From Solibacillus sp. R5-41 (lineage in GTDB: Bacteria > Bacillota > Bacilli > Bacillales_A > Planococcaceae): a stretch of 64,000 nucleotides of DNA. The stretch is from positions 3,526,001 to 3,590,000 of the forward strand of contig NZ_CP024123.1 of assembly GCF_002736105.1 (NCBI RefSeq), read 5' to 3'. Both the position numbers and the translations under genes were made by a program. Below the pieces are notes generated by a model. It ran no database searches, had not been told where the DNA came from, and was given only the letters and a program-made list of their open reading frames with translations. Shown here piece by piece: positions 34,664-55,735 of the stretch (positions are counted from its first letter, which is position 1; every line of letters begins with the position of its first letter).

Positions 34664-34687
34664 TATGGAGACGGCGGGAGTCGAACC
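34664..34687 (-). other. attL core
   Basis: Exact 24-bp match to the ssrA 3' end at 55381-55404; beyond it the sequence diverges (ACCGTATT here versus CGCGTCCA in ssrA). Confidence 0.9.
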
Positions 34688-44254: not shown

Positions 44255-44776
44255 TTCAAACTTTTTGCTTACAACGATATGCGTAAAGATAAGGCACGCG
44301 CTCTTACTTGGAAAAGAGTTAACTTTAAAACAAATGAGATATGTATAAACAAAGGAATTTCTCACGAGAAAGACAACAAGCTTTATGTCAATGACACCAA
44401 AACAGATGATTTCCCGTATCATTAACGATGCAGGATGTCGATTCTTTCAGAGTGGTAGAAGGGACAAAGGAAAAGAATTTTGTAGAAAGGATTAATACAG
44501 CTCAACTGTAACAGGTTGTTTTAGCAATGAAGATAATAACTTCTTACAGCATGCAAAAAGAAAATGGCTTAAGGACACGTATGATCTACCTAAAATTAAG
44601 ACACGTGCTTTCTGTCATTTACATTACTTTCTTATATCTAGAAGCTGATGAAATACTAAAGAAGTACAGAATCGCTTAGGACATTCGGATATTCGAACTA
44701 CAAAGAACATTTATGCACAGGTTTCAAGAAAACAAAAGAAGGAGCCATCAATAAATTCGATAGGTTCATTGTATTT
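44255..44776 (+). pseudogene. Decayed tyrosine integrase
   Basis: Pieces of the C-terminal catalytic domain can be read in shifting frames: NDMRKDKARALTWKRVNF (first catalytic arginine), GISHEKDNKLYVNDTKTDD, TRAFCHLHYF (HxxR box, damaged), and RLGHSDIRTTKNIYAQVSRK (tyrosine). These match the intact island integrase domain by domain. A relic of an earlier insertion. Confidence 0.75.
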
Positions 44777-44868
44777 TTTTCATTGAGGGTATTGCAAATC
44801 AATAGGATTTGATGAATGATCACAAAATAAAAAATCCTTGTGGATGAGAAAATTAAAGTTAAAAAATA

Positions 44869-44896
44869 AAAAACAGCCATAAACGGCTGTTTTTTA
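44869..44896 (-). terminator. Terminator of the RT/GIY-YIG operon
   Basis: AAAAAACAGCC pairs with GGCTGTTTTTT on the minus strand, overlapping the GIY-YIG stop codon. The long A/T arms make it work in both directions. Confidence 0.85.
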
Positions 44897-45733
44897 CTGC
44901 AATTCTTTTAAGCTTCTACCAAATTTATTCTTCCACTCCGTCAACCCATTCGCACTTCGTCCCATAACAATATCAGCTGCTGCAGAAGGACTCGTAAACA
45001 AAAGATCCTCCATCACAATAAATTCACCATTAATAACTGTTACTCTTTCTGACTGTATTAGTTCATTTCTTTTAGCAATTGAACGTTCTGAATAGGAATT
45101 AACATAATCCGTTGCAATTTTAGAACCATTTAAGACAACAAAACCCTCCTGAGTTTGAATTCCATTTGCTTTCGCACCACGAGCAGCTTCAATAAAGAAA
45201 ATATCATTTTCGTGAATTTCAGCATTGTCTTTAATTTCCTCAAATAACTTATGTCCAAGCGTATTTACCATCATCATAAGGTTACTAATATATTCATCCA
45301 TTTCCGCACGATCTGGTTCTGATATAGAAGGCATTGGAGGGATATTTCCATTCATCACGAAATAACGATTTGTTGCTTTCGCTCTTTCATATAATTTATT
45401 TTCGATGTATTTAATGTGGGCTTTATTTAGGTTTTCGTCTTTACTAATAAAAACGATAACTTCGTTCCAAAAGTCTTTTTCTCGTAAGTGATATTGTAAT
45501 CTCTCATATACTTCTTCTGCTTCACCAATGTATACGGCCTCTTTATCATCCTCATTGCGACCAAATAACATGTATACACCTGTCGAATTTAAATTAGGTC
45601 GATCCGCGCATTTCTTCACCTCAGTACGAGGGATTCGATAAGCTAAACCTGTCCAATTCGAAAGCTCACAAGTTAAACGCCCACTCGGATCTCCATCTAT
45701 TAGAAACATTTTTATTGTCTTTCCAAAAGTCAT
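44894..45733 (-). CDS. GIY-YIG nuclease domain protein with DUF4357
   Basis: 279 residues. GIY-YIG domain with GVYML (52), VYIG (67-70), arginine at 78 and catalytic glutamate at about 111 (IKYIENKL). The C-terminus has the DUF4357 module (TSPSAAADIVMGRSANGLTE). ATG at 45733 is preceded by AGGTGAGAAGTA, starting 19 bp after the RT stop, so it is translated from the RT message. Homologues often occur alone or near restriction genes. Here it may be the effector or a nucleic-acid processing partner of the RT, which is an inference from operon structure. Confidence 0.85.
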   Translation of the reverse strand: MTFGKTIKMFLIDGDPSGRLTCELSNWTGLAYRIPRTEVKKCADRPNLNSTGVYMLFGRNEDDKEAVYIGEAEEVYERLQYHLREKDFWNEVIVFISKDENLNKAHIKYIENKLYERAKATNRYFVMNGNIPPMPSISEPDRAEMDEYISNLMMMVNTLGHKLFEEIKDNAEIHENDIFFIEAARGAKANGIQTQEGFVVLNGSKIATDYVNSYSERSIAKRNELIQSERVTVINGEFIVMEDLLFTSPSAAADIVMGRSANGLTEWKNKFGRSLKELQ

Positions 45734-45752
45734 TACTTCTCACCTATCCGTA

Positions 45753-47141
45753 CTAATTATTTAACTTATTATGAATTTTCACCCAATGTCTCTTAGTTTG
45801 CTTCCTGATATATGATTTACAAGGTAACTCTTTCATCATTTTATGCGCTTTTTTCGCATATGCATTAAAGTTACCATAACCAAGATATTTATGACCAAGA
45901 TGCGTATATAAATCATATAACTCTCTTTTCGGGCCAGGTCGGTTAGTAGCATAAGCTATTCGTTTACTCGTTTTAGTTTTCTTATATGCACGGGAATAAT
46001 ACTTGAATAAACTTTTTTCTCTAATCTTAATAATATTTTTATCTATAACGAAGCCTAAATAATCTAATGGACTAATTTCCATCTTTTCATTATAAATTGT
46101 CTTATCTCTATATAAGCGCATCTCCGTCTTCTTTTCTTGAATAATTAGACCATCGTCTTTATAGCGGTCAATTTGAATCAAAAATTCATTTTTCCACTCT
46201 TCAAGTAGTTCTACAGTAGCATTAGCTGTAGGTATTACAATTATAAGATCATCGCAATATCTTCTATATAATGCTTCTGGATGCTTCTGCTTAGACCATT
46301 CAAGTACTTCTTTATCGAAGTCGATTAAATGCACATTAGAACAAACTGCACTCATACCAGAACCTTGGGGTATTCCATAAAAATTCTGATTCACTTTAAT
46401 TTTCCCTTCTTTAAATTGCCTAAATTCAGTTGGGTTCATAATTTTAGGCAATTTAGACCGAATCTTTCTCAATTTCTTTCTTCCATACTTATCAAGCAAA
46501 AACTCTTCTATATCCGCCTTTTCTACATATGAATAACGAGTGATATTTTTAAAAATTTTGTACCAATCTTTTGGTAACTCTTCTACGTTTAATACACGTT
46601 TAATTTTTTGCTTAAGTGATTTGTGATTAATATTATCAAAAAAGCTTTTAAAATCTAATGCTATAACTATTGATTGATCTTGCTTCAAAAGAAAATCAAA
46701 CACCTCATATGCAAAATCAATGTTATTTTTACCGCGCTTATTATTTCGATAGGCGACAGCTATCTCATTAATATCTTTATTAGAAGCATAGTGGTTATAT
46801 GCATTGTTAAGTAAGTCTCCGTAATATTTGTAAATGAGACTATCTTTATGAGCAGCGTAATATATTTCACGTGGCTTCTTGTCTGGCTTCTTATATTTTT
46901 CTCCCTTTTCATTTTTTAAAGTTATATATTTTTTAAATACAATTTCGAAATGAATGGACGGCAAAAAAGCATATGAAGCTACCCAAGATGGGTCTTGGAT
47001 TTTCGCTTGCATATGCTCATCATTTTTTATATCTACACGTTTATCAAAGTGTAGATATTCCTTTTTCTTGTATTTTGACCAATTAATTTCAGAAGAGCTA
47101 GAAAGGCCATGTAATCGTCGCGGCCCATTACTTCTATTCAA
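45753..47141 (-). CDS. Defence-type reverse transcriptase (DRT2/UG-like)
   Basis: 462 residues. RT motifs: ALDFKSFFDNINH (catalytic D163), GIPQGSGMSAVCSN (256-269), YRRYCDDLIIV (YCDD at 295-298), IIQEKKTEM, LDYLGFVI. No maturase X/HNH domain, so not a group II intron protein; no VTG or NAxxH retron motifs were found, so a retron is unlikely. The YCDD site, the length and an upstream ncRNA fit the unknown-group RTs of DRT2 kind. TTG start at 47141 follows AGGAGGCTGATCTAT. Exact UG class is not certain. Confidence 0.85.
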   Translation of the reverse strand: MNRSNGPRRLHGLSSSSEINWSKYKKKEYLHFDKRVDIKNDEHMQAKIQDPSWVASYAFLPSIHFEIVFKKYITLKNEKGEKYKKPDKKPREIYYAAHKDSLIYKYYGDLLNNAYNHYASNKDINEIAVAYRNNKRGKNNIDFAYEVFDFLLKQDQSIVIALDFKSFFDNINHKSLKQKIKRVLNVEELPKDWYKIFKNITRYSYVEKADIEEFLLDKYGRKKLRKIRSKLPKIMNPTEFRQFKEGKIKVNQNFYGIPQGSGMSAVCSNVHLIDFDKEVLEWSKQKHPEALYRRYCDDLIIVIPTANATVELLEEWKNEFLIQIDRYKDDGLIIQEKKTEMRLYRDKTIYNEKMEISPLDYLGFVIDKNIIKIREKSLFKYYSRAYKKTKTSKRIAYATNRPGPKRELYDLYTHLGHKYLGYGNFNAYAKKAHKMMKELPCKSYIRKQTKRHWVKIHNKLNN

Positions 47142-47406
47142 ATAGATCAGCCTCCTAGCATAATTTTGGCGGGTTCACCCTTATACGGGGAAGAGCCTTT
47201 GACCGCTTGCACTCTAGAAGAGTACTCTTAAACATTTGGTATCATTACCGTAAGGAGGTAATTCTAACCGTGATTAGTTTATTCAATGTGGAAGGCCAAG
47301 CTTTAATAGCAATGATCCTCGACATCTGGTGGTTGAGCGAGTTTATGAACGTTCAGAAACTTGCTCAACATAGAAACTAATTGCTCTCACAACCAATTTT
47401 GGAGAC
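47142..47406 (-). ncRNA. Structured ncRNA upstream of the reverse transcriptase
   Basis: About 265 nt between the promoter at 47413-47441 and the RT start, with no coding gene. Read on the minus strand it has a long hairpin TTGAGC-AGTTT/AAACT-GCTCAA capped by TGAACGTTCA (47332-47368), a long-range pair ATTAGTTT/AAACTAAT that encloses it, an ATTACC/GGTAAT hairpin (47244-47262), AAGAGTACTCTT and a CCCCGTATAAGGGTG-type stem. Structure-rich leaders of this length serve as the template RNA in DRT2-type systems. Two stop-free windows (47306-47386 and 47248-47352) are noted. Role inferred. Confidence 0.65.
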
Positions 47407-47412
47407 AAGTTA

Positions 47413-47441
47413 ATTGTAACTAAATTTTCAAGTAAATACAA
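47413..47441 (-). promoter_or_regulatory. SigA promoter of the ncRNA/RT operon
   Basis: TTGTAT (47436-47441), 17-bp spacer, TACAAT (47413-47418) on the minus strand; the predicted start is near 47406. Confidence 0.65.
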
Positions 47442-47513: not shown

Positions 47514-48398
47514 TTAATTTAATTTTTGATAATGCTCCTTCATATAACCTAATTGCTTTTCATTCAACTTTACTCGCAACCCATCATGAATATTCAAAAA
47601 CATTCGAGCTGTTTCATCTAATGTTTGTGATATCACAATCTTTCCTTGTAAATCAAACGAAATTAAATGTTTATCAAACAATGCATCATGATTTGGACAA
47701 AGTAATAATCCATTATTCACGTCAAGACGCTCCTCATTTGTAGAAGTGCTCCATGGTTTAATATGACTAGCTATCAAAACTCGTGGATCGGTTACACCAC
47801 ATAATGCACATTTACATTCACGATCGAAAAGTAATTTTTTAAACTTCCCCTGACCTATGCGCCCTTTGATTAGGCGTTCTTTTTCAGTTTGAAGTATTGG
47901 TAGGTTTTCAATTTGCTGAATTTCATTAAATTCTTCTTCTAGTTCTTGCTTATCATTCTTAGGAGATGGTAATTTTGTAAACTTTGCTTTACTATCCTTT
48001 AAGCGCAGAGGGAAAATCCATACAAGACGCTGCCTTCCATCTTGATCCTTTTGCTGCCCCTGATAAGGCTCGCCAGCAAGCTCTACCTGTCCTCGATATG
48101 TATATTCTCTCGGCTTCATTACCTCAAAAAAATGAACCTCGACTCCATTAATGTCTGATTCAGCTAATGTTAAATTTTGACCGCTCATTTTCTGATCACC
48201 ACTCTGGCCCATACCTGTATAATGATAAATATCATCTACTACCTTGTCATCATAAAGCTTCGTCTTATCCGAAATAAGCGTCAACGTATTAGTACGATTC
48301 GATTTACGCATTCCCCCCTGCGGCGCACATAAAAACACCCCACAAAGTTGCTTATTATTTACAACTTCATTGATTACTAACGGACGTTTCATACTCAT
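47514..48398 (-). CDS. HNH endonuclease with SRA-like domain (McrA type)
   Basis: 294 residues. The N-terminal half (YHYTGMGQSGDQKM, FFEVMKPREYTYRG) resembles the SRA/YDG-like base-reading domain of ScoMcrA-type enzymes; the C-terminal HNH domain has CALCG, ASHIKPW, NNGLLLCPNHDALFD. Such type IV enzymes cut DNA with modified bases. ATG at 48398 after GGGAGATAATTCT is used, although the frame is open to 48542. It is upstream of the ncRNA on the same strand. Confidence 0.82.
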   Translation of the reverse strand: MSMKRPLVINEVVNNKQLCGVFLCAPQGGMRKSNRTNTLTLISDKTKLYDDKVVDDIYHYTGMGQSGDQKMSGQNLTLAESDINGVEVHFFEVMKPREYTYRGQVELAGEPYQGQQKDQDGRQRLVWIFPLRLKDSKAKFTKLPSPKNDKQELEEEFNEIQQIENLPILQTEKERLIKGRIGQGKFKKLLFDRECKCALCGVTDPRVLIASHIKPWSTSTNEERLDVNNGLLLCPNHDALFDKHLISFDLQGKIVISQTLDETARMFLNIHDGLRVKLNEKQLGYMKEHYQKLN

Positions 48399-48697
48399 AG
48401 AATTATCTCCCAAAATATTATTTATTCTTATTATTATATTCATTGTACTATGAAGGTAAACATAGGACCATGGTGTCAGATGAAAAGTCTCCCTAACTGC
48501 GCAGGACAAAATAACCCAATATAAACCATTAATAACATTCAATGTTAAAAAATATTTATTTCAAGTATAATAATCAACTAGGAATAGATCTCAGATTTAA
48601 AGATTGATCAAGAGAAATCACTTCATCCAGCTAGTGATGACATCAAGCTTACTGAGTTGTGGAGTAGCGTATAAAATATTAGAAAGTTGGTATAAAT
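48399..48697. other. Divergent intergenic region
   Basis: About 300 bp between the HNH and XRE genes. TATAAT at 48566-48571 could be a rightward -10 element but its -35 is weak. No operator or RNA recognised. Confidence 0.35.
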
Positions 48698-50053
48698 TTG
48701 ATTGATTTGGAAGCATATCTAGTTCCTAAAATTGCAGAGCGATGTAAAAAATTAAGAGTAGATTTAGGTTTTCCTATGGAAAGAATATCTGATAGAAGTG
48801 ATATAAGTCGTATCGAAAGAGGTAAGATTCGTGGTAATTTCATTACAGAAACAGTACTTTTAGACTATACTACTATTTTTGATAAAGCTCCAGAAGAGAT
48901 TATTTTCGGAAGTTCAGAAGAATTTGAAGAAACTTTAAAATGGCTTTTTACAAATTTGTTTAAACTAATTAATCTTAAAGATTTAACTACTGATTCAGAC
49001 TTGTATGAAGGTAAAGATAATATTGATATCGAGTCCCAAAAAGCTATGTTATCAATGGCAGAAACTTTTGCTGAATATAATATAAAGCGATATAACTTTC
49101 TAAAATCTGATGAGATTTATATGGATAATGTAAGTAAAAAGTTTGATTATCCTTTATGGATAGGTGGGAAAATCGTTAATATCGAGAGAGATTTTAGAAT
49201 AAATCCAATAAATGAAGAAACTGTAATCGATCTTTTTGATATGAGAGACAAAATGTGGTTGATGTGTAGAAAGAAGATTATAAGTTCATTCAGAGCTGAA
49301 ATAATTGATAAAATTTTCAATAAATTCGACTATTCTAAGATTAATTCTGAAGTTAGACAGTGGATTTTGGGGCAATTTAATAAAATTATTATTCCTGATG
49401 TTGTAGCAAAATTAAAGAGTAATATGATTTTCAAAATCGGATTCATGGTGAAAAGTTTAATTGATGAATTCCTAGATGAAGATTTAGCAATATCATTTCA
49501 AAATACGATTCCATTGCAGACGACAAAAGCTGAACACTACAAAATAAACATTAGTAGTGCTGGTTTAAGAGGATTATCGGAAGCTGAAAGAATTGAAAGA
49601 GCTGAAATAATATCAGTAGTTATGAAAACATTACAAAAAGGAGATATTCCAGATGCTAAGTTGTTACGGTATGGCATTACCTTTAGTGAAGTACCTGAAA
49701 CTATTTCAATTAAAGAAGTCGAAATTGATGATGTTATAAATCGTGCAGTCAATAACAGGGGTATTGGAAGGACTCTTAAGAATCCACGGATGTTTGAAGA
49801 AAGTCCTATTTTTGAGACATCAGATTTTAATTCTCAGGAAGAGGTAATGGCTGCTATGGAGGATTGGTATAATGATAAACACTTTAAAAATCAAAACATC
49901 CCAGGGTATTTGACTAATAATAGCCAAATAGTTCAACGCTTGCAAGAACGTATGAATAAAGATATTCATGAATCAATTGATAGATTTATTGATATTCAAA
50001 ATAATCTTTTGAAACTGTTGACTGATGAGGAACTAATACATTTTTCTAAATAG
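48698..50053 (+). CDS. XRE-like HTH protein of unknown function
   Basis: 451 residues. The first 70 residues form an XRE-type HTH (RCKKLRVDLGFPMERISDRS, ISRIERGK). The rest is helical and unfamiliar, ending in a long helical region (RLQERMNKDIHESIDRFIDI). TTG start at 48698; the ribosome site is weak (AGAAAGTTGG). It is the first gene of the rightward mobility segment, so it is either the island repressor or a regulator of the defence array on its left. Confidence 0.65.
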   Translation: MIDLEAYLVPKIAERCKKLRVDLGFPMERISDRSDISRIERGKIRGNFITETVLLDYTTIFDKAPEEIIFGSSEEFEETLKWLFTNLFKLINLKDLTTDSDLYEGKDNIDIESQKAMLSMAETFAEYNIKRYNFLKSDEIYMDNVSKKFDYPLWIGGKIVNIERDFRINPINEETVIDLFDMRDKMWLMCRKKIISSFRAEIIDKIFNKFDYSKINSEVRQWILGQFNKIIIPDVVAKLKSNMIFKIGFMVKSLIDEFLDEDLAISFQNTIPLQTTKAEHYKINISSAGLRGLSEAERIERAEIISVVMKTLQKGDIPDAKLLRYGITFSEVPETISIKEVEIDDVINRAVNNRGIGRTLKNPRMFEESPIFETSDFNSQEEVMAAMEDWYNDKHFKNQNIPGYLTNNSQIVQRLQERMNKDIHESIDRFIDIQNNLLKLLTDEELIHFSK

Positions 50054-53972: not shown

Positions 53973-54023
53973 TCAAGTTCTACAAGAGGATTTTTCCCCA
54001 GTTAAATTATATATTATAACTGT

Positions 54024-54044
54024 GAGGATTAATCCTCTCTTTTT
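54024..54044 (+). terminator. Terminator between xis and int
   Basis: The palindrome GAGGATTAATCCTC is followed by TCTTTTT. Confidence 0.55.
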
Positions 54045-54078
54045 ATCTTGCCCCCGCAACGATATTAGGAGGATCACT

Positions 54079-55245
54079 ATGAAAAAAAATAATTCTTCAC
54101 CCATCAAAAATTATCAAAATAAAGATGGTAAAACATTATATATGTTTCGAGTATTTTTAGGAACAGATGAACTAACAGGAAAAGCTAAAAACACTACACG
54201 CCGTGGATTTAAAACAAAAAAAGAAGCAGAGCTCGCTTTAGCACGTATTAAACTACAAGTATCTGAAGGAACATACAAACAAAAGAGCGCAGAAACCTAC
54301 CAGGAAGTTTACGATCTTTGGATTAACCAATATGAAAAAACTGTAGAAGAAAGTACATTTGTTAAAACAGCTGGCTACTTCAAAAATCATATCTTACCTG
54401 CTATGGGTAATTATCGTATCGAAAAAATCACGATTGCTATTTGCCAAAAACATTACAATGAATGGGCTACAAAAGTTCAAAAAGCGCGTACAATTAAATC
54501 CTATGCAAAAAAAGTTTTAGATTTCGCTATTGTACATGGCTTTATTCAAACTAACCCATTCACACATGTTGAGACCAAAGTAAAGAAAGCCTTTACTGAA
54601 AGTGTAGAAGAAGGAAGCGAAAATTTTTATATTAAAGATGAGCTAATTACATTTCTAGAAAAGGCAAAAGAGCATCTTAACTTTAAGGCATATGCCCTAT
54701 TACGATTAATTGCTTATACAGGGATGCGAAAAAGTGAGGCATTAGCATTAACCTGGAATGATGTAAACTTTGTAGAAAGTGAACTCACAATCAATAAAGC
54801 AATTGGCCGTGGTAAACAAACACAACTTTATTTAAAAACAACCAAAACCGGCAAGCCACGCGCAATAAAACTAGATGAAACAACGTTATTGATCTTAAAA
54901 GAATGGAATAAGCATCAGAAGCAGCAATATATAAAACTTGGGTTTAATACAATGAAGAAGAATCAGTTGATATTTAGCAACACTAAAAACGAATTTATTC
55001 AACCTGTGCAAGTACAAAAATGGATGTATAGTGTGCAAAATAAATATCAGTTCAAGCATGTATCGCCACATGGCCTTCGACATACGCATTGCTCACTTTT
55101 ATTCGAAGCGGGTGCAAGCATTAAAGAAGTACAAGATCGCTTAGGACATTCAGATGTTAAGACTACTTTAGACATTTATACACATGTAACTAAAAAAGCG
55201 AAAGAAGGTGCTATACAGAAGTTTGTGAACTATTTAGAGGGTTAA
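54079..55245 (+). CDS. int: Tyrosine recombinase (island integrase)
   Basis: 388 residues: an AP2-like arm-binding N-terminal domain (KTLYMFRVFLGTDEL), SAM-like core-binding domain, and catalytic domain with AYTGMRKSEALALTW (Arg I), HGLRHTHCSLL (HxxR), LGHSDVKTTLDIYTHV (tyrosine). ATG at 54079 follows TTAGGAGGATCACT; the frame is open from 54022. It lies 136 bp from attR, so it is the enzyme for ssrA integration. Confidence 0.92.
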   Translation: MKKNNSSPIKNYQNKDGKTLYMFRVFLGTDELTGKAKNTTRRGFKTKKEAELALARIKLQVSEGTYKQKSAETYQEVYDLWINQYEKTVEESTFVKTAGYFKNHILPAMGNYRIEKITIAICQKHYNEWATKVQKARTIKSYAKKVLDFAIVHGFIQTNPFTHVETKVKKAFTESVEEGSENFYIKDELITFLEKAKEHLNFKAYALLRLIAYTGMRKSEALALTWNDVNFVESELTINKAIGRGKQTQLYLKTTKTGKPRAIKLDETTLLILKEWNKHQKQQYIKLGFNTMKKNQLIFSNTKNEFIQPVQVQKWMYSVQNKYQFKHVSPHGLRHTHCSLLFEAGASIKEVQDRLGHSDVKTTLDIYTHVTKKAKEGAIQKFVNYLEG

Positions 55246-55357: not shown

Positions 55358-55380
55358 ATGAAATCATTTGATTTCTATTT

Positions 55381-55404
55381 TATGGAGACGGCGGGAGTCG
55401 AACC
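55381..55404 (-). other. attR core
   Basis: 24-bp core identical to 34664-34687, formed by the last bases of ssrA (the T-arm region of the tRNA-like domain). Confidence 0.9.
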
Positions 55405-55735
55405 CGCGTCCAGAAGCTCCAATACTCCGGCTTCTACGCGTGTAGTTTACCTATTTGCGATTCGCGTGGCATTATGCCGGTAAACAGGCGTCCTGCACGC
55501 TAGCTTGGAAATCTCTTGCCGGTGACTCAAGCGGCACCACCGACCGTATCCCACTAAAGTTGGGCCCTACGTACTGCACATGGGCGATGCAGAGGCAGAG
55601 CGCTTACGAGCTTACGCTGCGAAAGCTAAGTTTTGTTGTTTGCCAGTTATAATATAACTTCCGTTGATGACGAAGACGAGACCTCCGACGCGCGACCAGA
55701 GCTTGAACCACCCCTGTCGAATCCGTAACGTCCCC
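55383..55735 (-). ncRNA. ssrA: tmRNA
   Basis: Begins GGGGACGTTACGGATTCGAC at 55735 and ends with the tRNA-like GGGTTCGACTCCCGCC acceptor part closing on CCA at 55383. The tag frame reads GKQQNLAFAA then TAA. It rescues stalled ribosomes with SmpB, whose gene is close by. The 3' end is the island integration site and is preserved. Confidence 0.95.

What the first reader, a model, noticed from the sequence alone, without database searches (positions are those of the whole stretch)
44869..47441. ncRNA-reverse transcriptase-GIY-YIG operon: possible new DRT-type defence system
The sequence shows one promoter, a 265-nt structured non-coding leader, an RT with YCDD active site and no maturase or retron motifs, and a GIY-YIG/DUF4357 gene starting 19 bp after the RT stop, closed by a terminator. 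Known DRT2 systems consist of an ncRNA and a single RT. A translationally linked nuclease would be an added component. It sits in an island with other anti-phage genes.
Basis: partly seen in the sequence, partly recalled or inferred. Interest (0 to 1): 0.88.

Follow-up and report, generated by a model that had tools for sequence, protein, structure and literature searches.

The report
DRT2 defence operon with hidden gene
This is a bacterial anti-phage reverse-transcriptase system of a known kind (DRT2) that appears to build a hidden growth-arrest gene out of its own non-coding RNA using a different joining signal from the one described, while the nuclease gene next to it looks like an interchangeable neighbour rather than a core part.

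Summary
The operon is real: weak promoter, leader RNA, YCDD reverse transcriptase (RT), GIY-YIG/DUF4357 gene 19 nt after it, terminator. The RT is a divergent DRT2: PADLOC Drt2 448 bits, nearest solved structure the DRT2 complex 9c0i, but below NCBIfam's Drt2 cut-off. The leader carries the DRT2 signature in reverse complement: a 144-nt unit bounded by two GTTT motifs which, head to tail, rebuilds a -35/17 nt/-10 promoter and a stop-free frame with RBS and GTG start (a neo gene). The same holds in 16 of 16 loci (window included) picked for the motif; two more clade members have an in-frame GTTT unit but a poor -10. Published DRT2 uses ACA; other clades here show other motifs that follow the RT tree. 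Choosing by promoter alone, 31 of 33 high-scoring leaders are in frame and stop-free, against 0 of 9 equally high-scoring shuffles. The GIY-YIG gene is a listed candidate (PDC-S14) beside 3 of 70 DRT2 loci and beside other defence genes; it is not co-inherited with the RT, though the pairing recurs in the Winogradskyella family. So: DRT2 with a variant jump motif, not a new DRT type. No activity was tested.

The parts
47413..47441 (-). Putative promoter of the ncRNA-RT-GIY operon, TTGTAT - 17 nt - TACAAT
   Evidence: Sequence; TTGCAT-17-TACAAT in L003; weak, not listed by the consensus scan
47142..47406 (-). Structured non-coding leader (DRT2-type ncRNA), about 265 nt from the inferred transcription start
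   Evidence: Fold z -2.84; alignment of 14 rows; start site inferred, not shown
47385..47405 (-). 5' handle hairpin of the ncRNA
   Evidence: 7 of 7 pairs with changes on both sides, 97.1% of cells paired in 15 distinct rows
47374..47377 (-). [quoted passage not shown]
   Evidence: Present in 16 of 16 loci picked for it and in L070, L071; coordinates
47230..47233 (-). GTTT-2, inferred jump motif just 3' of the template
   Evidence: As for GTTT-1; coordinates
47234..47377 (+). Neo unit: reverse complement of the 144-nt template, 48 sense codons, endless when repeated head to tail
   Evidence: Stop-free in one of three frames, length divisible by 3
47361..47366 (+). -35 (TTGCTC) of the promoter rebuilt across the repeat junction
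   Evidence: 17 nt from the -10 of the next repeat
47240..47245 (+). -10 (TATCAT) of the rebuilt promoter
47252..47272 (+). Neo ribosome-binding site (AAGGAGG) and GTG start codon
   Evidence: Sequence; similar stretch in many of the relatives; start codon inferred
45753..47141 (-). DRT2-type reverse transcriptase, 462 aa, YCDD
   Evidence: PADLOC Drt2 1.4e-134; NCBIfam Drt2 346.5 bits, cut-off 390; PDB 9c0i 1.9e-54; Foldseek top hit 9c0i 1.3e-27
44894..45733 (-). GIY-YIG/DUF4357 protein, 279 aa, PADLOC candidate family PDC-S14; judged an accessory neighbour
   Evidence: PADLOC 4.5e-115; DUF4357 1.5e-18 and weak GIY-YIG 0.003, below its cut-off; Y54, Y68, G70, R78, E111, N128 invariant in 12 rows
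44865..44898 (-). Intrinsic terminator closing the operon
47514..48542 (-). HNH_2 endonuclease gene upstream; in L031 it is followed after 95 nt by the GIY-YIG gene without the DRT2 cassette

Best explanation
A DRT2 (UG2) anti-phage operon, in a subclade that uses GTTT instead of ACA as the template-jump motif, followed by an independent accessory GIY-YIG gene. Proposed working: (1) the leader ncRNA and RT are co-transcribed and form a complex (inferred by family); (2) the RT copies the 144-nt template, ends on GTTT-1, and the AAAC end of the cDNA re-pairs with GTTT-2 for another round (inferred from the motif pair); (3) the head-to-tail cDNA, once double-stranded during infection, rebuilds TTGCTC-17-TATCAT (shown in sequence, activity inferred); (4) the transcript is read from GTG as an endless 48-residue repeat protein, Neo (frame shown in sequence, expression inferred), which arrests the infected cell (inferred from K. 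pneumoniae DRT2). The GIY-YIG protein is most likely a separate, exchangeable defence gene translated from the same message.
For: RT identity. Neo: in 16 of 16 loci picked for the motif (window included) the GTTT pair with the best promoter, chosen without looking at frame, gives a length divisible by 3 (141-159 nt), exactly one stop-free frame and a 17-nt spacer; a shuffled unit of the same length is stop-free with probability 0.017-0.235. The two other members of the clade, L070 and L071, have a GTTT pair 123 nt apart, in frame and stop-free, with TTGACA. Free motif choice over 73 leaders (3 near-copies dropped from the real counts): of 33 reaching score 17, 31 are in frame and stop-free; of 876 shuffles 9 reach 17 and none passes; at score 15, 41 of 51 against 12 of 339. 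Motif labels need 10 changes on the RT tree, the minimum for 11 groups (10 motifs and the outgroup), 19 rows uncounted. 5' hairpin covaries. Mechanism as described for KpnDRT2 in PMC12039810 and PMC11100668. GIY-YIG independence; L031.
Against: No expression, cDNA or phage data. NCBIfam's Drt2 cut-off is missed. For the window alone the rebuilt promoter is mediocre (score 14); two shorter candidates of 85 and 87 nt with 3- or 4-base motifs score 16, and the 87-nt one is also in frame and stop-free: the assignment rests on relatives. L070 and L071, inside the clade, have a poor -10 (TCTATT) and an 18-nt spacer. Of the 33 high scorers two fail: L150, an annotated Drt2 (145 nt), and L091. Codon-level constraint on Neo is weak: pN/pS 0.66 against 0.82 and 0.98 in shifted frames, and window against L003 has 9 of 12 changes amino-acid altering. 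The 3' scaffold helices (tower, buttress, pseudoknot) were not recovered by RNAalifold. The recurrence of RT-GIY-YIG pairs in a second phylum leaves room for a real partnership.
Confidence: 0.86

Rival explanations
1. A three-part system: the GIY-YIG nuclease is a working component of this DRT2 branch, for example trimming the hairpin-ended concatemeric cDNA or cutting phage DNA in the same response.
For: 19-nt spacing and a shared terminator; pairing recurs in L111, L187 and L192 at 14, 2 and -4 nt; candidate catalytic residues invariant.
Against: 3 of 70 DRT2 loci have it, and 11 further Bacteroidota RT loci (L155-L165) have none; L110 without it nests among GIY-linked RTs; the gene follows HNH, type I HsdR and PDC-M62B genes elsewhere; no co-inheritance with DRT2.
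Confidence: 0.12
2. The leader templates something other than neo (such as a DRT9-like homopolymer or a cDNA without a coding role), and the open frame is incidental.
For: Weak codon constraint; poor rebuilt promoter in L070 and L071; no product is known for this clade.
Against: Joint occurrence of 17-nt spacer, frame and length in 16 of 16 and 31 of 33 loci against shuffles; fold and sequence nearest DRT2, DRT9 far behind.
Confidence: 0.05
3. A retron or group II intron RT misread as a defence RT.
For: Weak hits to retron and intron RT profiles.
Against: Drt2 profile 448 bits against 46 for the best model labelled retron; intron RT 66 bits against a cut-off of 300; six weakly matching RTs of unverified type are split off by a fully supported branch.
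Confidence: 0.01

Closest known systems
DRT2 / UG2 of Klebsiella pneumoniae (neo system; PDB 9c0i)
   Same: Upstream ncRNA, single-domain YCDD RT, 5' hairpin before the template, template unit divisible by three, antisense stop-free frame, promoter rebuilt over the repeat junction with 17-nt spacing, RBS after the -10
   Different: GTTT instead of ACA as the inferred jump motif; unit 144 nt (141-159 in the 16 loci, 123 in two more) rather than 120 (111-129 reported); GTG start; RT 31% identical in the Foldseek alignment and below NCBIfam's Drt2 cut-off; GIY-YIG gene downstream
PDC-S14 (PADLOC candidate; GIY-YIG/DUF4357 protein)
   Same: Full-length profile match, 381.8 bits
   Different: Here it lies in one operon with DRT2; the name is in 3 papers of the library, seen as a listing only, and I know of no tested function
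DRT9
   Same: ncRNA-RT layout; second-ranked fold match
   Different: Published product is poly-dA, no coding role seen (PMC12483538, passages); fold match far weaker (7.6e-10 against 1.3e-27)

Membership tests
DRT2 | RT of the Drt2/UG2 family by profile | tested here: met
   PADLOC PDLC03757 447.8 bits, best non-Drt2 model 67 bits
DRT2 | NCBIfam Drt2 equivalog cut-off (390 bits) | tested here: not met
   346.5 bits, so a divergent relative rather than an equivalog by that rule
DRT2 | Fold nearest to the DRT2 RT, YCDD active site | tested here: met
   Foldseek 9c0i 1.3e-27, next 7.6e-10; model mean pLDDT 72.7; RYCDD
DRT2 | Upstream structured ncRNA with 5' handle hairpin | tested here: met
DRT2 | 3' scaffold with tower, buttress and pseudoknot | tested here: inconclusive
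   Conserved 3' sequence, helices not resolved
DRT2 | Template flanked by two ACA motifs (reported for close KpnDRT2 homologues) | tested here: not met
   GTTT pair instead, 16 of 16 loci picked for it. This is a feature of published close homologues; the annotated Drt2 loci L148 and L149 did not give ACA either
DRT2 | Head-to-tail unit rebuilds a 17-nt-spaced promoter | tested here: met
   mediocre in the window itself, stronger in most relatives
DRT2 | Unit divisible by three with a stop-free antisense frame, RBS and start | tested here: met
DRT2 | Rolling-circle cDNA, Neo toxicity, phage defence | not testable with these tools
   Needs infection and sequencing
PDC-S14 | Profile match to the PADLOC candidate family | tested here: met
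   PDLC04925 4.5e-115 over the full protein
PDC-S14 | GIY-YIG nuclease activity | not testable with these tools
   Residues conserved; Pfam GIY-YIG below its cut-off; fold search weak, no hit at E 0.001, top 2lwf E 0.03
Retron | Retron RT profile | tested here: not met
   Best model labelled retron 45.9 bits against Drt2 447.8; NCBIfam retron St85 45.7 bits, cut-off 235
Group II intron | Group II RT/maturase profile cut-off | tested here: not met
   66.2 bits, cut-off 300

The most novel reading that the evidence does not exclude
A DRT2 branch has recruited a GIY-YIG nuclease as a second component, more than once (window's family and the Winogradskyella family), so that the nuclease acts on the reverse-transcribed concatemer or on phage DNA in the same response; with it, DRT2 jump signals are an evolving code (ACA, GTTT, GTGA, GTAT, ATGA, ATCT and others), so that neo genes are a general property of DRT2 across phyla.
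Probability: 0.12. Interest if true: 0.8.

Novelty: new variant of a known kind. Interest (0 to 1): 0.55.

Why it matters
The preprint describing neo reports that in more divergent DRT2 clades Neo was harder to annotate and raises the possibility of alternative mechanisms (PMC11100668, section 10). The present result offers a simpler answer that can be tested at once: such clades may well have neo, but with another jump motif. It gives predicted units, motifs and reading frames for about thirty leaders, mostly of Bacillota, a few of Pseudomonadota and of phage or viral records, and a natural series of jump motifs for asking how an RT re-primes on a few bases of homology. It also warns against reading operon neighbours in defence islands as components.

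Tried and rejected
A new DRT type defined by the nuclease: rejected on linkage and trees. Retron and intron origin: rejected. Rfam gave no family for the leader at gathering scores. First viral-contig scan with the single protein found no relative; with the alignment, one locus. A phage search with the 1.8-kb cassette found nothing. Codon-substitution test gave only weak support. RNAalifold of the whole ncRNA resolved the 5' handle, one template stem and a pairing of the RT's Shine-Dalgarno, but not the 3' scaffold. ACA as jump motif in the annotated Drt2 control L148: the best solution had AGAT and a 111-nt unit, a length reported in print; L150 was out of frame at 145 nt, though a 144-nt stop-free candidate with a 16-nt spacer ranks second. 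GIY-YIG fold search was weak. Many Bacteroidota leaders gave TATTT- or ATTT-type candidates with weaker sigma-70-like promoters, left unassigned because I recall that phylum's promoters as different.
Full report
What is there. On the minus strand of the window lie, in order, a weak promoter (TTGTAT-17-TACAAT, 47413-47441), a leader of about 265 nt, a 462-aa RT gene (45753-47141), a 279-aa GIY-YIG/DUF4357 gene starting 19 nt later (44894-45733) and a terminator (44865-44898).

The RT. It matches PADLOC Drt2 at 447.8 bits and NCBIfam Drt2 at 346.5 bits, below the cut-off of 390. Among solved structures its nearest relative by sequence is the DRT2 RT (9c0i, 1.9e-54), and a model built from an eight-row alignment (mean pLDDT 72.7) matches 9c0i at 1.3e-27, the next being DRT9 at 7.6e-10. 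In a quick tree of 59 RTs it lies among the DRT2 rows, sister to L003, with six weakly matching RTs of unverified type as outgroup. It is a divergent DRT2.

The hidden gene. In K. pneumoniae DRT2 a template between two ACA motifs is copied round and round; the antisense repeat rebuilds a promoter across the junction and an endless frame, neo (PMC12039810 section 4, whole; PMC11100668 sections 7, 8, 10, 11 and the first part of the figure legends). Comparing leaders of relatives showed the same layout here with GTTT in place of ACA. The window's 144-nt unit (47234-47377) puts TTGCTC 17 nt before TATCAT across the junction, then AAGGAGG and GTG, and reads through with no stop in one of three frames; the other two frames and the three frames of the opposite strand all have stops.

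How strong. In 16 loci (window, L003-L008, L060, L061, L063-L068, L089) I took, among all GTTT pairs 84-200 nt apart, the one with the best promoter, ignoring frame: 16 of 16 were divisible by three (141, 144, 147, 153 or 159 nt), had one stop-free frame and a 17-nt spacer. These 16 were picked because the motif had been seen in them. L070 and L071, which the tree places inside the same clade, have a GTTT pair 123 nt apart that is in frame and stop-free with TTGACA, but an 18-nt spacer and a poor -10, TCTATT; L009, just outside, gives AGTTT, 171 nt, in frame, score 15. With any shared motif of four or more bases, and again choosing by promoter alone over 73 leaders (three near-copies left out of the real counts), 33 reached score 17, of which 31 were in frame and stop-free (failures L150 and L091); of 876 shuffles 9 reached that score and none passed. 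At score 15 the figures are 41 of 51 and 12 of 339. For the window alone the promoter is mediocre (score 14); candidates of 85 and 87 nt score 16 and the latter is also in frame, so the assignment rests on comparison. Codon constraint is weak (pN/pS 0.66 against 0.82 and 0.98, 55 pairs), in line with the published remark that the template tends to be the least conserved part of the RNA. The 5' hairpin covaries strongly.

Jump motifs differ by clade. Besides GTTT, the same procedures gave GTGA, ATGA, GTAT, ATCT, ATTT or GTG (tied), AGAT, TATGT, ATTG and TCAAGT in other loci. On the RT tree these labels need 10 changes, the minimum for 11 groups (10 motifs and the outgroup). Caveats: 19 rows without a confident motif were not counted, four of the motifs rest on one row each in the tree, GTGA alone needs two changes, and the tree is a quick one. 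I found no paper describing this: searches for DRT2 with rolling circle and neo, with template jumping, with UG2 and Bacillus, and with divergent homologs listed the two founding papers, a structural DRT2 paper (PMC12596737, passages read), papers on other DRT types (PMC12483538, passages; others as listings), reviews and unrelated papers. The journal version of PMC11100668 and the supplements were not read, so part of this could be in print.

The GIY-YIG gene. It matches the PADLOC candidate PDC-S14 over its full length; putative catalytic residues are invariant in 12 rows (that they are catalytic is recalled), while Pfam GIY-YIG is below cut-off and a fold search is weak (top 2lwf, E 0.03). 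Of 70 DRT2 loci, near-copies included, 3 carry it (window, L003, L111); three of the 70 have under 700 nt of room downstream. Eleven further Bacteroidota RT loci, L155-L165, some of them partial matches, have none. Seen from the other side, 58 GIY-YIG loci with 1.5-kb flanks, many of them partial or remote matches, include four with a DRT2 RT hit: L036 (same place as L003), L153 (same as L111), L187 and L192. Ten upstream genes were scanned against PADLOC: one HNH, one type I HsdR, three PDC-M62B-like, one Drt2 (L187) and four without a match. In L031 the window's HNH gene is followed after 95 nt by the GIY-YIG gene, so the ncRNA-RT cassette lies between two genes that also occur side by side without it; insertion or loss cannot be told apart. 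In a tree of 27 GIY-YIG proteins the five DRT2-linked rows need five changes, at least four forced by well supported branches; window and L003 are not sisters there although their RTs are. L110, lacking it, nests among GIY-linked RTs of the Winogradskyella family. The gene is not co-inherited with the RT. Still, tight pairing in two phyla keeps a partnership possible; I give it 0.12. Searches for papers with DRT2 and GIY-YIG, and with DUF4357 and GIY-YIG, showed no report of a linkage (listings; the one paper, a review, was not opened; passages of PMC4619093).

Setting. The operon lies in a 20.7-kb element bounded by a 24-nt repeat of the tmRNA gene's 3' end (34664-34687 and 55381-55404) with an integrase beside it; type I restriction, methylase and specificity genes lie inside. 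L003 also lies about 6 kb from a tmRNA gene, so a shared island history can explain its identical gene order. The genome belongs to the family of Psychrobacillus, Ureibacillus and Lysinibacillus: loci L004, L008 and L009, told as same family, lie on contigs of the same length and range as named contigs of those genera.

Verdict. A DRT2 system with a variant jump motif and a recognisable neo gene, next to an exchangeable nuclease-like gene. Every functional step beyond sequence is inferred from K. pneumoniae DRT2.

Noticed in passing
34664-34687 and 55381-55404: 24-nt direct repeat of the tmRNA (ssrA) 3' end bounding a 20.7-kb element with integrase (54022-55245), a Rep_OBD gene, a weakly FtsK-like gene, type I R-M, DRT2, HNH and GIY-YIG: an ssrA-integrated mobile defence island.
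   Followed up: partly
47139-47275: The complement of the neo ribosome-binding site (CUCCU in the ncRNA) can pair with the RT gene's own Shine-Dalgarno (AGGAG); 12-14 of 14 rows pair but never by double change. Possible autoregulation, or a trivial result of two conserved sites.
   Followed up: no
55380-55735: Neo is a non-stop protein, and its release in K. pneumoniae is proposed to use ArfA rather than tmRNA (PMC11100668, legend to Fig. 4); this system sits in the tmRNA gene of a Gram-positive relative of Lysinibacillus, for which I recall no ArfA. How Neo would escape tmRNA tagging here is open.
   Followed up: no
44300-44780: Degenerate integrase-like remnant just downstream of the operon, seen by eye, perhaps of an older element.
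   Followed up: no
48698-50053: 451-aa ORF pointing away from the HNH gene, with no Pfam or NCBIfam family at E 0.01 and only a marginal PADLOC hit.
   Followed up: no
L097, leader upstream of the RT: The leader holds an exact tandem duplication: 136 bases match at a distance of 132, and the unit is in frame and stop-free. It could be a neo repeat written back into the genome, or an ordinary duplication.
   Followed up: no
L068: Contig titled Lutibacter MAG carries an RT that groups with the Bacillota GTTT clade; probably a mis-binned contig.
   Followed up: no
L005:1-2901: A DRT2 RT directly abutted by a large gene with a P-loop by eye: another tight, different downstream neighbour.
   Followed up: no
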